A model generated the notes under the pieces. That model was not told where the DNA came from and made no database searches. It saw only the letters and a program-made list of their open reading frames with translations. Positions 1 through 47,652 of a stretch of 64,000 bases of DNA are shown piece after piece. The DNA lies in contig NZ_JAFBCO010000001.1 in assembly GCF_016907775.1 (NCBI RefSeq), forward strand, positions 1,302,001 through 1,366,000, read 5' to 3'. The number at the start of each line of letters is the position of its first letter. The first letter of the stretch is position 1. The position numbers and the translations under genes were made by a program. This stretch comes from Pseudoglutamicibacter cumminsii. Lineage in GTDB: Bacteria > Actinomycetota > Actinomycetes > Actinomycetales > Micrococcaceae.

Positions 1-469
1 AGAACCGCACAATCTCGTCGAGCGCGTCTTCGGGTCGAAGGTGACCGGTGCGGGTGGCGATGCCATCCCGCTGCGCTGAGTGCATAACCACCAGCCTGCA
101 GTCCGCCTCAGCAATATCGGGATAGAGCGCAGGGTCAGGAAATCCTTGGATATCGTTCAGGTAGCCCACGCCGCGCTTGAGCGCATAGCGCTGGGTTTCC
201 GGTTGGAAGCTGTCGATTGAAACACGGTGCATCTGATCGGACAGGGCGTCTAAGAGCGGCGCAATACGTCTGATCTCATCGGCCGGCGATACAGGCCTCG
301 CGTCCGGATGGCTGGCGGCCGGTCCGACATCCACGACGTCTGATCCGACTCGCAGCATTTCGATCGCCGCGGTGACAGCGCCGGCGGGGTCTAGCCGCCG
401 GCTCTCATCGAAGAAGGAGTCCTCGGTGAGATTCAGAATGCCGAACACCGTCACCCTGCTGCGTAACAT
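1..469 (-). CDS. sul1: Sulfonamide-resistant dihydropteroate synthase Sul1, 5' part, fused to integron ORF-11 start (runs off left edge)
   Basis: Sul1 replaces the sulfonamide-sensitive dihydropteroate synthase of folate synthesis in the cytoplasm. The translation after the first five codons follows the Sul1 N-terminus (VTVFGILNLTEDSFFDESRR, then the DVVDVGPAASHPDARPVSP stretch). About 156 residues are in the window; the rest lies to the left. The usual sul1 start (M-V-T-V-F) is missing. The frame opens at an ATG at 467-469 with codons for M-L-R-S-R, which are the first codons of the ORF-11 peptide in attI1, followed directly by Sul1 Val2. A GGAG lies 8 nt upstream of this ATG. No cassette array and no qacEdelta1 lie between intI1 and sul1. 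Transcription probably comes from PcW inside intI1. Identity is strong; expression of the fusion is inferred. Confidence 0.93.
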   Translation of the reverse strand, partial: MLRSRVTVFGILNLTEDSFFDESRRLDPAGAVTAAIEMLRVGSDVVDVGPAASHPDARPVSPADEIRRIAPLLDALSDQMHRVSIDSFQPETQRYALKRGVGYLNDIQGFPDPALYPDIAEADCRLVVMHSAQRDGIATRTGHLRPEDALDEIVRF

Positions 470-471
470 CG

Positions 472-561
472 TTGCTGCTCCATAACATCAAACATCGACC
501 CACGGCGTAACGCGCTTGCTGCTTGGATGCCCGAGGCATAGACTGTACAAAAAAACAGTCA
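472..561 (-). other. Remnant of integron 5'-conserved segment between intI1 and sul1 (attI1 leader, attI1 core lost)
   Basis: This stretch is the standard class 1 integron leader between intI1 and the first cassette: TTGTTATGAC, a T run, TACAGT, then the leader up to ORF-11. It stops at the AGCAGG of ORF-11 and continues as sul1, so the attI1 core (GTTRRRY) and everything up to codon 1 of sul1 are absent. The secondary promoter P2 has TTGTTA and TACAGT separated by 14 nt, the spacing described as inactive. The site can no longer accept cassettes. Confidence 0.8.
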
Positions 562-570
562 TAACAAGCC

Positions 571-1362
571 ATGAAAACCGCCACTGCGCCGTTACCACCG
601 CTGCGTTCGGTCAAGGTTCTGGACCAGTTGCGTGAGCGCATACGCTACTTGCATTATAGCTTACGAACCGAACAGGCTTATGTCCACTGGGTTCGTGCCT
701 TCATCCGTTTCCACGGTGTGCGTCACCCGGCAACCTTGGGCAGCAGCGAAGTCGAGGCATTTCTGTCCTGGCTGGCGAACGAGCGCAAGGTTTCGGTCTC
801 CACGCATCGTCAGGCATTGGCGGCCTTGCTGTTCTTCTACGGCAAGGTGCTGTGCACGGATCTGCCCTGGCTTCAGGAGATCGGAAGACCTCGGCCGTCG
901 CGGCGCTTGCCGGTGGTGCTGACCCCGGATGAAGTGGTTCGCATCCTCGGTTTTCTGGAAGGCGAGCATCGTTTGTTCGCCCAGCTTCTGTATGGAACGG
1001 GCATGCGGATCAGTGAGGGTTTGCAACTGCGGGTCAAGGATCTGGATTTCGATCACGGCACGATCATCGTGCGGGAGGGCAAGGGCTCCAAGGATCGGGC
1101 CTTGATGTTACCCGAGAGCTTGGCACCCAGCCTGCGCGAGCAGCTGTCGCGTGCACGGGCATGGTGGCTGAAGGACCAGGCCGAGGGCCGCAGCGGCGTT
1201 GCGCTTCCCGACGCCCTTGAGCGGAAGTATCCGCGCGCCGGGCATTCCTGGCCGTGGTTCTGGGTTTTTGCGCAGCACACGCATTCGACCGATCCACGGA
1301 GCGGTGTCGTGCGTCGCCATCACATGGGCTCTGTTGCAAAGATTGGCGGCAGTCAGAGGTAG
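571..1362 (+). pseudogene. intI1: Class 1 integron integrase, 3'-truncated by IS6100
   Basis: IntI1 is the tyrosine recombinase that inserts and excises cassettes at attI1. The first ~252 residues match the IntI1 N-terminus ([20 protein letters not shown] onward), including the [22 protein letters not shown] box that carries the first catalytic arginine. After ...SGVVRRHHM the frame enters the IS6100 terminal repeat at 1327 and stops at 1362. Full-length IntI1 is 337 aa, so the HxxR box and catalytic tyrosine are lost and the protein should be inactive. The gene still carries the outward promoter that serves sul1. Confidence 0.93.
658..686 (-). promoter_or_regulatory. Integron common promoter PcW (weak variant)
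   Basis: On the minus strand, TGGACA (686-681) and TAAGCT (663-658) are separated by 17 nt inside intI1. This pair is the PcW variant, and the overlapping IntI1 residues R32 and H39 fit that variant. It points leftward into the ORF-11::sul1 fusion. Confidence 0.85.
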
Positions 1363-2206
1363 GCTGTCGCTCTGCGCCGATCAGGCGGCTGCTGCGAAAT
1401 GGTGGTTGAGCATGCCCATGGCCTCCGTCAGCGCCGAGGGCCCAATGCCAAAAGCTCTCTCCACAAGGCGCACCTCGCCCCTGATGCCGGGCTGCAGGCA
1501 CCAGGGGCGAGCCTGTCCTTTGCGCAGGGCTCGCATGACTTCGAATCCCTTGATCGTGGCATAGGCCGTGGGGATCGATTTGAAACCGCGCACCGGCTTG
1601 ATCAGTATCTTGAGCTTTCCGTGATCGGCCTCGATCACGTTATTGAGATACTTCACCTGCCGGTGGGCCGTCTCCCGGTCCAGCTTTCCTTCGCGCTTCA
1701 ATTCGGTGATCGCTGCACCATAGCTCGGCGCTTTGTCGGTATTGAGCGTGGCAGGCTTTTCCCAGTGCTTCAGGCCTCGCAGGGCCTTGCCCAGGAACCG
1801 CTTCGCTGCCTTGGCGCTGCGGGTCGGCGACAGGTAGAAATCGATCGTGTCGCCCCGCTTGTCGACTGCCCGGTACAGGTAGGTCCACTTGCCCCGCACC
1901 TTGACGTAGGTTTCATCCAGGCGCCAGCTCGGATCAAAGCCACGCCGCCAGAACCAGCGCAGCCGCTTCTCCATCTCCGGGGCGTAGCACTGGACCCAGC
2001 GATAGATCGTCGTATGGTCGACCGAAATGCCGCGTTCCGCCAGCATTTCCTCAAGGTCGCGATAGCTGATCGGATAGCGACAATACCAGCGCACCGCCCA
2101 CAGGATCACATCACCCTGGAAATGGCGCCACTTGAAATCCGTCATCGTTCCGTCCGTCCAATCTCCGCCAAGTATGCTCAAGCTTCACGATTTTTGCAAC
2201 AGAGCC
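1327..2206 (-). mobile_element. IS6100 (IS6 family), complete, 880 bp
   Basis: The element is bounded by 14-bp perfect inverted repeats (GGCTCTGTTGCAAA at 1327-1340 and its complement at 2193-2206) and is exactly 880 bp, the IS6100 length. The 8-bp flanks (ATCACATG left, TCGCTGCG right) differ, so there is no target duplication here. One side is intI1, the other the 3' end of tadA. This fits a copy that took part in a cointegrate or deletion, or one end of a composite element whose other IS6100 lies left of the window. Confidence 0.97.
1381..2145 (-). CDS. IS6100 transposase
   Basis: This is the DDE transposase of IS6100, 254 aa from MTDFKWRHFQGDVILW. IS6-family enzymes act by replicative transposition and form cointegrates. 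The N-terminal helix-turn-helix (YPISYRDLEEMLAERGI) is followed by the catalytic core, with LDETYVKVRGKW giving the first Asp and the TDKAPSYGAA and YLNNVIEADHGKLK segments giving the other acidic residues. The frame also reads 12 codons further upstream, but 254 aa is the usual product. No disruption is seen, so the element looks able to transpose. Confidence 0.96.
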   Translation of the reverse strand: MTDFKWRHFQGDVILWAVRWYCRYPISYRDLEEMLAERGISVDHTTIYRWVQCYAPEMEKRLRWFWRRGFDPSWRLDETYVKVRGKWTYLYRAVDKRGDTIDFYLSPTRSAKAAKRFLGKALRGLKHWEKPATLNTDKAPSYGAAITELKREGKLDRETAHRQVKYLNNVIEADHGKLKILIKPVRGFKSIPTAYATIKGFEVMRALRKGQARPWCLQPGIRGEVRLVERAFGIGPSALTEAMGMLNHHFAAAA

Positions 2207-2703
2207 TCGCTGCGCATCGTGGCGAAGAAATCCTGGAGGATTCTCTGGCATTCATCGGCGCGCATACCCGCGAAAACTTCGGCCCGATGATTGAGCCGCG
2301 GCTCCCGCAGGATGTCCATGACGGAGCCGGTCGCGCCGGCTTTCTCGTCCCACGCGCCGAAAATAACTCGCGGGATCCGTGCCAGAACGATCGCACCAGC
2401 GCACATCGCGCATGGCTCAAGCGTGACCACAAGCGTGCAGTCGGTAAGCCGCCAGCCGTCGCCCGCTTCGGCATCGTCCGCGAGAATGCGCGCGGCCTCA
2501 CGGATAGCTACAACCTCGGCGTGGCCGGTCGGGTCGCCGTCGCGTTCACGGATGTTGTGGCCGCGTGCCACGATCTTCCCGTCAGGCCCCACGATGACCG
2601 CGCCGATGGGAATGTCGCCGTGAAGGGCGGCCGCGCGTGCTTCTTCGAGCGCGGCGTCCATCCATTCGTTGGCGCCTGAAGGTGGTTTGATCGGCATGTC
2701 CAT
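2185..2703 (-). CDS. tadA: tRNA adenosine(34) deaminase TadA, last codons replaced by IS6100
   Basis: TadA deaminates A34 to inosine in tRNA-Arg(ACG) and is usually essential. The zinc and catalytic motifs are present: HAEVVAIREA (His and Glu) and PCAMCAGA (the two zinc cysteines). The native frame runs to ...FFATMRS; the next seven residues (EALLQKS) and the stop come from the IS6100 end. Actinobacterial TadA usually ends near this FFxxxR stretch, so the core is probably intact and only the tail is changed. Anything once downstream of tadA has been displaced. The gene is divergent from upp. Its substrate tRNA-Arg(ACG) is also in this window. Confidence 0.9.
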   Translation of the reverse strand: MDMPIKPPSGANEWMDAALEEARAAALHGDIPIGAVIVGPDGKIVARGHNIRERDGDPTGHAEVVAIREAARILADDAEAGDGWRLTDCTLVVTLEPCAMCAGAIVLARIPRVIFGAWDEKAGATGSVMDILREPRLNHRAEVFAGMRADECQRILQDFFATMRSEALLQKS

Positions 2704-2780: not shown

Positions 2781-3419
2781 ATGCGCGTACATGTTGTTGA
2801 GCATCCCCTCGTGGCCCACAAGATTTCGGTTTTGCGTGACAAGACGACCCCGTCGCCGGTATTCCGCCAGTTGACTGAGGAACTTGTGACCCTGCTTTCT
2901 TATGAAGCCACACGTGACATCCGTACCCGTGAAGTCACGGTTGAGACGCCTGTCGCGACGACCAAGGGCGTTGCTTTCGCTAAGCCAACCCCGCTCGTCG
3001 TGCCTATTCTTCGCGCTGGCCTGGGCATGCTTGAAGGCATGATGCGCCTGCTACCTACCGCTGAGGTGGGCTTCTTGGGCATGGCGCGCAATGAGGAGAC
3101 CCTCGACATCATCACGTATGCGGAGCGGCTCCCGGAGGACCTATCGAACCGTCAGGTTTTTGTGATCGACCCGATGCTTGCAACGGGTGGAACGTTGGTT
3201 GAGTCGATCGGCTATCTCTTCGATCACGGCGCGGATCAGGTGACCTGCATCTGCTTGATCGCGGCTCCGGAAGGTGTTGAGCGCCTGCGCAAGGCCTACG
3301 GCGATGACGAGCGCGTGAACCTGTATGTCGCCGCTTTGGACGAGTGCTTGGATGAGAACGCCTACATCGTCCCGGGCTTGGGTGATGCGGGCGACCGCCT
3401 GTACGGCCTCGCTGAGTAA
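2781..3419 (+). CDS. upp: Uracil phosphoribosyltransferase
   Basis: Upp converts uracil and PRPP to UMP in pyrimidine salvage. Starting at [14 protein letters not shown] the protein has 212 aa, normal for the family. An ATG 24 nt upstream is in frame but gives an N-terminus unlike other Upp proteins. The PRPP-binding loop [11 protein letters not shown] lies near residue 130, and the uracil-binding C-terminus ([15 protein letters not shown]) is complete. It is divergent from tadA and convergent with the histidine kinase gene, which ends 9 bp away. Confidence 0.96.
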
Positions 3420-3428
3420 TTCGCAGCG

Positions 3429-5054
3429 CTAGACATCAGCACGGCGGCGTGTTGGCGCTGTTTCTGTTGGAGGGCTGTACGGTAGCCGGATCGTGAAGAC
3501 AGTGTCGCCTGGCTCGGATTGGGCGATGATGGTTCCGTGGTGGGCTTCGACGATCGCTTTGACGATCGCGAGGCCGAGTCCGCTGGTTGAGGATGAACCC
3601 GAGCGTGCTTTGTCAGCGCGGGCCAGTCTGTCGAAAATTTTCGGCAGGAATTCTGGATCGATGCCTTCCCCGGTGTCATGGAATCGGAGTACGACGTCGT
3701 AGCCGCTGTGGCGTGAACGTGCATGTTCGTCTGTATGCAGTTGCGTCGTGGATGTGTTGCCGGGTGAAGTTGAGGTGCGCGGCGTGGGCACGCTGGTCGC
3801 TTCGGACGGTTCGATGCCGACTGTGATGTTGACCTGGGTTCCGGAACTCGTGTGCTTCGCTGCGTTGGACGCGAGGTTGGAAAGGACGCGGCTGAGCTGT
3901 GTCGGGTCGCCTTCGACGTAGGCGGGCGCGCCTTCGGTGAAGGCATCGAATTCCCACGTGTGGTCGGAGAACGCGGCCTGGGAGTCGAGGTAGGCGTTGG
4001 CGGCGAGCTGAACCATGTCGATGGTTTCCATTGCGGAGGCGGTGGTGCCTTCATCAAGACGGTTCAGCAGCAGGAGTTGCTCGACCATCTCGGTCATGTT
4101 TTCTGTCTGCTCAATGAGCCTCTCGAGCGAGCGTTCGCCGTCGGGGGATAACTGGTCGGTGACGTGGATGAGTTGTGCGTAGCCGCGGATTGCTGCGAGT
4201 GGTGTACGCAGTTCGTGGGAGGCGTCGGCTACGAAGCGCCGCATTTTGGTTTCTGATGCGGTACGGGTTTCGAGGGCGCCACCAACGTTGTCGAGCAGCC
4301 GGTTGAGGGCTCCGCCGAGCCGACCGAATTCGGTTGATTTGCTTGCGAGGTCGCGGTCTACTCGTTGGTCGACGTGCACGTCTGACTCTGAGAGCGGCAG
4401 GGTCGCGATCGAGTCGGCGACGTCGACGACGTGTTCTAGCGGTTTCATCGTGGACCGCACAACGAAGGTTCCGATCGCACCGACGAGCACGATACCGACG
4501 GCCGAGACGATCAGCATCGTGAGGTCGAGCGTCCTGAGTGTCGCGTAGGTGCGTTCTGTCGGGAGGCCCGCGACCATCACGGTTGAAGAGGGGAGCTCGG
4601 ATGAGCTGACCGGTTGAATTCGGAGTCGGTAATCGCCTGCGTCGAGGCTGATTGTGATGCCCGCGGAGGTCTCTGTTGGGTCGACTTTGGCGACTTCGGA
4701 GAGAATCGTGTTGCGGTCGGTGTCCGAAAGCTTCGTGGGCATGCCGGTGTAAGGATCAGAGAGCTCTGGCCCGGCACGGAATTGACCGTCCGCGACGAGG
4801 GCGGCGAGGGTTCCGACGGGCTGGCTGCTGACGTCTGTGACGGGCATGTGGTCGCTAGCGGATGTCGCGCGGTCGATGGTTGCGGTGAGGCTGGAATCCA
4901 GTTGCCCCCACAATCGGGCAGCCATGAGGGCGTGTGTGAACCCGCCGATGATCATAGAACCAGCGGCGAGCATAAGGGTCAGCAAGACCACCAAGCGTAA
5001 GCGCAGTGACATGCGCGCATTCTTGCGAGCTGTGTGGCGCTTGCTGAGACGCAC
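3429..5054 (-). CDS. Two-component sensor histidine kinase (HAMP, HisKA, HATPase)
   Basis: This membrane sensor kinase phosphorylates the response regulator encoded just upstream. Membrane segments lie at about residues 20-42 and 180-202, with an extracytoplasmic sensing region of about 140 residues between. A HAMP linker follows, then the H-box ASHELRTPLAAIRGY with the phospho-accepting His near 280, the N-box NLASNAAKH, and G-boxes DTGEGIDP and GLGLAIV. A poorly conserved, Ser/Thr-rich insertion (PTPRTSTSPGNTSTTQLHTD) splits the ATPase domain between the N-box and first G-box. It starts with GTG, 7 bp after the regulator gene stop. The stimulus cannot be told from sequence. Confidence 0.93.
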   Translation of the reverse strand: MRLSKRHTARKNARMSLRLRLVVLLTLMLAAGSMIIGGFTHALMAARLWGQLDSSLTATIDRATSASDHMPVTDVSSQPVGTLAALVADGQFRAGPELSDPYTGMPTKLSDTDRNTILSEVAKVDPTETSAGITISLDAGDYRLRIQPVSSSELPSSTVMVAGLPTERTYATLRTLDLTMLIVSAVGIVLVGAIGTFVVRSTMKPLEHVVDVADSIATLPLSESDVHVDQRVDRDLASKSTEFGRLGGALNRLLDNVGGALETRTASETKMRRFVADASHELRTPLAAIRGYAQLIHVTDQLSPDGERSLERLIEQTENMTEMVEQLLLLNRLDEGTTASAMETIDMVQLAANAYLDSQAAFSDHTWEFDAFTEGAPAYVEGDPTQLSRVLSNLASNAAKHTSSGTQVNITVGIEPSEATSVPTPRTSTSPGNTSTTQLHTDEHARSRHSGYDVVLRFHDTGEGIDPEFLPKIFDRLARADKARSGSSSTSGLGLAIVKAIVEAHHGTIIAQSEPGDTVFTIRLPYSPPTETAPTRRRADV

Positions 5055-42286: not shown

Positions 42287-47371
<5,085 letters not shown>

Positions 47372-47533
47372 AACACCAACACATCCTTTACGAGGGTTCG
47401 CGTCCACTAAGCGGTCACCACACCACAAACCCACCCCTTAGGGTGACACACACATAATTCAATACAACAGCACACACGCGTGTGCACGTAACACACAGGT
47501 TTCCCCACCAGCAACACTGGCAGGGGTGAGAAA

Positions 47534-47652
47534 GTTACGGCGGCTATAGCGTGGGGGAAACGCCCGGTCCCATCCCGAACCCGGAAGCTAAGCCCCACAG
47601 CGCCGATGGTACTGCAACCGGGAGGTTGTGGGAGAGTAGGACACCGCCGAAC
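47534..47652 (+). rRNA. rrf: 5S ribosomal RNA
   Basis: The 119-nt 5S sequence starts at GTTACGGCGGCTATAGCG and ends at ACACCGCCGAAC; these ends pair. CCCATCCCGAACCCGGAAG is the conserved loop. Confidence 0.94.

What the first reader, a model, noticed from the sequence alone, without database searches (positions are those of the whole stretch)
1..560. In-frame fusion of integron leader peptide ORF-11 with sul1
The Sul1 frame starts at the ATG of ORF-11 in attI1 (M-L-R-S-R) and joins Sul1 at Val2, so the first Met of Sul1 has been replaced by five leader residues. ORF-11 is known to raise translation of a downstream cassette; here the leader's ribosome site now drives sul1 itself. The usual cassette array and qacEdelta1 are gone. 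This gives a minimal Pc-ORF11-sul1 resistance unit. I am not aware of this exact junction in standard integrons.
Basis: partly seen in the sequence, partly recalled or inferred. Interest (0 to 1): 0.72.

Follow-up and report, generated by a model that had tools for sequence, protein, structure and literature searches.

The report
Known ORF-11–sul1 fusion in IS6100 transposon
The sulfonamide-resistance gene here really is fused to a short integron leader, but this join is already in print and in many plasmids, and here it travels inside a small IS6100 transposon of the known Tn610 type, so the find is ordinary.

Summary
On the minus strand the ORF-11 ATG (window 467-469) opens a frame, MLRSR, that joins Sul1 at Val2 (452-454): 283 aa instead of 279. 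It is not new. The exact 30-base junction is in 119 of 72,556 plasmid records and 12 of 5,426 E. coli genomes; a 34-base version is in 16 stretches of genome contigs. A RefSeq protein, WP_000946487.1, starts at the ORF-11 ATG. The P. aeruginosa PA7 genome paper (PMC2809737, passages) says sul1 [quoted passage not shown]. Here the fusion sits in a 4,204-bp unit, IS6100–orf5–sul1–ΔintI1–IS6100, with direct IS6100 copies and an 8-bp target duplication at the 3' end of tadA; three congeners lack the insertion. A Propionibacteriaceae MAG holds the same unit with 2 mismatches and another 8-bp duplication. It is a Tn610-like IS6100 pseudo-compound transposon. Identity with Tn610 itself, translation from ORF-11 and resistance were not tested.

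The parts
2..469 (-). 5' part of the fused ORF-11–sul1 gene (whole gene L003:9618-10469, 283 aa; the rest lies left of the window)
   Evidence: alignment to Sul1 7s2i_A from query residue 6
455..469 (-). ORF-11-derived leader codons M-L-R-S-R
452..454 (-). GTG, codon 2 (Val) of standard Sul1: first Sul1 codon kept
   Evidence: standard ATGGTGACGG start in L021-L023
478..481 (-). GGAG Shine-Dalgarno of ORF-11, 8 nt from the ATG
   Evidence: same motif and spacing described in PMC8876359 (passages)
451..495 (-). shortened ORF-17 (MFDVMEQQRCYAAG-stop); its TGA overlaps the Sul1 GTG as GTGA
658..686 (-). Pc promoter, TGGACA-17-TAAGCT (PcW)
   Evidence: hexamers of PcW as in PMC8876359
571..1326 (+). 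truncated intI1, 756 of 1014 bp; its frame runs on into IS6100 to 1362
   Evidence: 754 of 756 bases match the full gene in L031
1327..2206 (+). right-hand IS6100, 880 bp with 14-bp terminal inverted repeats (transposase frame on the - strand); the left-hand copy is L003:8003-8882, same orientation, 1 base different
2207..2214 (+). 8-bp target duplication TCGCTGCG; partner copy at L003:7995-8002, outside the window
2185..2703 (-). host tadA-like gene (named from resemblance, recalled); C-terminus changed by the insertion (…RSEALLQKS here, …RNEAST in sister species G002)

Best explanation
A Tn610-like IS6100 pseudo-compound transposon carrying a deleted class 1 integron. A past deletion joined attI1 (inside ORF-11) to codon 2 of sul1, removing the far end of attI1, any cassettes and qacE-delta-1. 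Pc and the ORF-11 ribosome-binding site would then make a 283-aa Sul1 with N-terminus MLRSR-V. IS6100 copies in direct orientation moved the unit into the 3' end of a tadA-like gene, leaving an 8-bp duplication. Shown here: anatomy, open frame, duplications, absence of the insertion in congeners, the same unit elsewhere. Inferred: the deletion as the route, expression from ORF-11, sulfonamide resistance in this host, one origin of the join.
For: Frame and junction. Published description of the fusion in PA7 and, through it, in Tn610; the PA7 locus L014 holds the exact junction. Junction in 119 of 72,556 plasmids, 12 of 5,426 E. coli genomes (some of these plasmids are in both collections), 16 genome contigs stretches. 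WP_000946487.1 starts at the ORF-11 ATG. Two direct IS6100 copies of 880 bp and 8-bp repeats TCGCTGCG. The other three species of the genus that were searched (G001, G002, G003) align across the site without the insertion, at 81%, 93.6% and 77% (the joined query lacked two bases at the join), and the G002 site is printed. The same 4,204-bp unit with 2 mismatches and its own GAACTCCG duplication in L017. IS6 review lists Tn610 as an IS6100 pseudo-compound transposon (passages).
Against: No RNA, protein or MIC data. The original Tn610 sequence was not found in the collections, so base-for-base identity with Tn610 is untested, and the 1990 Tn610 paper was not read. Pc is the PcW form (weak, recalled), and its activity in this host was not tested.
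Confidence: 0.95

Rival explanations
1. The join is a new, local event in this genome.
For: Only 2 of 396 sampled genomes of the same order, this one included, carry it, so it is uncommon among sampled relatives.
Against: Exact junction in 119 plasmid records, 12 E. coli genomes and 16 genome contigs stretches; published in 2010.
Confidence: 0.01
2. The same join arose several times independently, by the 2 bp (GG) shared between attI1 (GCAGCAGGG) and the sul1 start (ATGGTG), each time kept because it is in frame.
For: Among 27 loci with the junction (own-genome rows L001 and L003 and the duplicate L043 dropped) it lies beside PcW (9), PcW with TGN-10 (5), PcH1 (8) or PcS (2), and in 3 the Pc stretch is cut or diverged; PA7 has a more divergent intI1 segment (96.6%).
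Against: One exact breakpoint with 2 bp of homology is an unlikely repeat, and homologous exchange in the shared intI1/Pc stretch would also mix Pc types. But my searches used the exact join, so other joins were mostly not looked for; the one search that allowed 0-30 extra bases had two hits, both with none.
Confidence: 0.15
3. Sul1 is made mainly by re-initiation at the codon-2 GTG after the shortened ORF-17 stops at the overlapping TGA, so the product is near-native and the ORF-11 fusion is minor.
For: GTGA overlap at 454-451; ORF-17 is reported to help expression of a following gene (PMC8876359, passages).
Against: ORF-11 has GGAG 8 nt upstream and reads straight into sul1; the PA7 paper calls it a fusion. 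No experiment here.
Confidence: 0.15
4. Sequencing or assembly artefact.
For: None found.
Against: Identical join in many records; window 1-1400 is identical in L008 and L028 and one base different in L017.
Confidence: 0.005

Closest known systems
Tn610 of Mycobacterium fortuitum (IS6100 pseudo-compound transposon)
   Same: Flanked by IS6100, flanking IS in direct repeat (PMC7986276, passages); sul1 as a fusion with orf11 (PMC2809737, passages)
   Different: Base-level identity not tested: sequence not held. Chromosomal site and target duplication are this genome's own.
Truncated integron of RGP42, P. aeruginosa PA7 (L014)
   Same: Exact ORF-11–sul1 junction and identical sul1
   Different: orf5 cut to 337 of 501 bp, intI1 segment 96.6% identical, an IS6100 piece further off in the opposite orientation, Pc with PcH1 hexamers
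The 4,204-bp element in a Propionibacteriaceae MAG (L017)
   Same: Same length and boundaries, 2 mismatches, both IS6100 copies, an 8-bp duplication
   Different: Other target site (GAACTCCG)
IS6100-flanked class 1 integron of C. diphtheriae FRC24 (PMC3310561, whole text read)
   Same: Framed by two IS6100 copies; intI1 disrupted by IS6100
   Different: Keeps dfrA16 and qacH cassettes and qacE-delta-1; no sul1 fusion described

Membership tests
Tn610-like IS6100 pseudo-compound transposon | Two full IS6100 copies in direct orientation | tested here: met
   L003:8003-8882 and window 1327-2206, 880 bp each, 1 difference, same orientation
Tn610-like IS6100 pseudo-compound transposon | sul1 fused in frame to orf11 | tested here: met
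   feature as stated in PMC2809737
Tn610-like IS6100 pseudo-compound transposon | 8-bp target duplication typical of IS6 family insertion | tested here: met
   TCGCTGCG on both sides; no insertion at this site in G001-G003; 8 bp as family rule from PMC7986276
Tn610-like IS6100 pseudo-compound transposon | Sequence identity with the original Tn610 | not testable with these tools
   record asked for by a recalled accession is not in the collections
Tn610-like IS6100 pseudo-compound transposon | Replicative transposition with cointegrates | not testable with these tools
   needs a bench assay
Functional class 1 integron | Complete intI1 | tested here: not met
   756 of 1014 bp left, cut by IS6100
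Functional class 1 integron | Complete attI1 with its crossover end | tested here: not met
   attI1 ends at the junction (GCAGCAGGG, then sul1); standard copies L021 and L023 run on to GCAGTCGCCCTAAAACAAAGTT; place of the crossover recalled
Functional class 1 integron | Pc promoter | tested here: met
   PcW hexamers at 686-658; activity not tested
Sul1 sulfonamide-resistant dihydropteroate synthase | Sequence of Sul1 | tested here: met
   residues 6-283 align to 2-279 of 7s2i_A, identical in the printed alignment
Sul1 sulfonamide-resistant dihydropteroate synthase | Confers sulfonamide resistance | not testable with these tools
   needs an MIC test

The most novel reading that the evidence does not exclude
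The join offers two starts for one gene: direct translation from ORF-11 (283 aa) and coupled re-initiation at the codon-2 GTG from a shortened ORF-17 (GTGA overlap). Together these would raise Sul1 output from a weak Pc and help explain why this one join has spread across phyla beside several Pc variants.
Probability: 0.15. Interest if true: 0.3.

Novelty: already known. Interest (0 to 1): 0.08.

Why it matters
It shows that a rare-looking join is a widely deposited, mobile resistance unit found in proteobacteria and actinomycetes alike. By inference, screens that require qacE-delta-1 or a complete attI1 would miss it, and the fused form has its own RefSeq accession, which can make one gene look like two alleles. 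As a discovery it adds little.

Tried and rejected
Rejected: a novel junction; an artefact; a join made by IntI1 at the usual place, because the breakpoint lies inside attI1, before the GTT end seen in standard copies L021 and L023 (crossover position recalled). No phage record holds the junction (0 of 50,697).

Literature searches that did not give the join: (listings). Seen from them: passages in PMC3350403, PMC11721406, PMC8876359, PMC5641379, PMC13023784, PMC6222124 and PMC4245530; the whole text of PMC3310561. In PMC11721406 "fused to sul1" is about qacE, not ORF-11. The decisive paper, PMC2809737 (passages), was opened by a recalled DOI because the PA7 locus L014 had turned up. Searches for Tn610; passages in PMC7986276, PMC1590026, PMC10470526 and PMC7925387. 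Hanau-Berçot 2002 and Martin 1990 were not read; they are known here through PMC2809737 and PMC8876359.

Not settled: the species of the window's genome. I treat it as an actinomycete because its PEPCK-like gene (name recalled from resemblance) is 68-71% identical in DNA to that of Tessaracoccus, Corynebacterium propinquum, Flavimobilis and a Propionibacteriaceae MAG.

Full report
What is there. On the minus strand, window 469-455 reads ATGTTACGCAGCAGG (MLRSR) and runs in frame into GTG at 454-452 and Sul1. The genome search places the window at G000:C1:1302001-1366000; the stretch to its left (L003) completes the gene as a 283-aa frame, L003:9618-10469. Against solved Sul1 (7s2i_A, 279 aa) the alignment starts at query residue 6 and Sul1 residue 2 and is identical to the end, so five leader residues stand in place of Met1. 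Standard copies in relatives (L021-L023) keep ATGGTGACGG at the sul1 start and, where attI1 lies in the fetched stretch (L021, L023), an attI1 that runs on past GCAGCAGGG. Read against these, the join shares 2 bp (GG) between its two parents.

Signals. GGAG lies 8 nt before the ORF-11 ATG, as the review PMC8876359 describes for ORF-11 (passages). The promoter TGGACA-17-TAAGCT lies at 686-658, with the hexamers that this review gives for PcW. The overlapping ORF-17 is shortened to MFDVMEQQRCYAAG, and its TGA overlaps Sul1 codon 2 as GTGA; that this could serve as a second start is my inference.

The mobile unit. IS6100 copies of 880 bp lie at L003:8003-8882 and window 1327-2206, in the same orientation, one base apart. 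Between them lie orf5 (GNAT family), the fused sul1 and intI1 cut to 756 of 1014 bp. The 4,204-bp unit is bounded by TCGCTGCG on both sides. In the three other species of the genus that were searched (G001, G002, G003) the joined flanks align in one piece across the site, at 81%, 93.6% and 77% (my joined query lacked two bases at the join). The G002 site reads TTCATTGCG where this genome has TTCGCTGCG. The insertion changes only the last residues of a tadA-like gene (RNEAST in G002, RSEALLQKS here). A tRNA-Ser gene lies on the other side. In a Propionibacteriaceae MAG (L017) the same 4,204 bp occur with 2 mismatches and a different duplication, GAACTCCG: the unit has moved as a whole.

How common. 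The exact 30-base junction is in 119 of 72,556 plasmid records (129 places; 60 of the 119 rows were listed), 12 of 5,426 E. coli genomes (11 places on plasmids, 1 on a chromosome) and 0 of 50,697 phage records. Some E. coli plasmids are in both of the first two collections, so these counts overlap. A 34-base version is in 16 stretches of genome contigs. Of 396 sampled genomes of the same order, 2 hold it, this one included. Records very near the window's genome may be left out of these collections, as the tools state. I fetched 11 annotated stretches of my own choice, picked for variety and not at random. In four (CP026189, LC663736, NZ_CM148631, NZ_CP026405) a full-length Sul1 CDS starts at the ORF-11 ATG; in the last two it is WP_000946487.1. 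In NZ_CP038103 a CDS called folP starts there but keeps only the first 541 bases of the fused frame. In NZ_CP039857 only the first 60 bases of the fused frame remain. In the other five the start is given only by a resistance-gene predictor; the plasmid gene tables are incomplete by their own statement.

Lineage. Of 27 loci with the junction (16 and the 11 fetched; own-genome rows L001 and L003 and the duplicate L043 dropped), 9 have PcW, 5 PcW with TGN-10, 8 PcH1 and 2 PcS, and in 3 the Pc stretch is cut or diverged (the hexamers of PcS are recalled). Of the 25 that cover window base 657, 5 share this genome's T (L008, L011, L017, L028, L029: Corynebacterium, Flavimobilis, Propionibacteriaceae, Dietzia, Paenarthrobacter) and 20 have C, among them one further actinomycete, Tessaracoccus (L015). 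The IS6100 cut at 1326/1327 is shared by L008, L017 and L028. So this copy seems to belong to an actinomycete sub-lineage of a wider family of fused copies. One origin followed by exchange of Pc regions seems likelier than repeated identical joins, but is not shown.

In print. [quoted passage not shown] The IS6 family review (PMC7986276, passages) lists Tn610, flanked by IS6100, among pseudo-compound transposons. The fusion and this kind of carrier are therefore both known.

Verdict. Observation confirmed; interpretation right in anatomy and wrong in novelty. It is a Tn610-like element. Identity with Tn610 base for base, translation from ORF-11 in this host and the resistance phenotype were not tested.

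Noticed in passing
L036 (Sphingobium yanoikuyae pF3) 4001-4180: The fused junction with only about 98 bp of its attI1 side lies next to an aadA1 cassette, in a record that has a second, complete intI1 further off: it looks like a fused copy placed behind a cassette array.
   Followed up: partly
L032 (Salmonella IncHI2A plasmid) 3971-4030: Only the first 60 bases of the fused frame remain; a tet(M) leader peptide and tet(M) follow, and intI1 next to it is annotated at full length.
   Followed up: no
L022 (G002, same genus) and L023 (G008, same family): Relatives carry standard, non-fused sul1; their intI1 matches stop at window base 691-692, and in G008 IS6100 follows at once, a different cut from this genome's.
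   Followed up: partly
L034 (Aeromonas salmonicida pAsa5-3432) 3047-4030: A frame annotated folP (WP_149604791.1) keeps the first 541 bases of the ORF-11–sul1 frame and then continues into other sequence.
   Followed up: no
window 42287-47652: 16S, 23S and 5S rRNA genes, all matched over their whole models; could be used to name the host.
   Followed up: no
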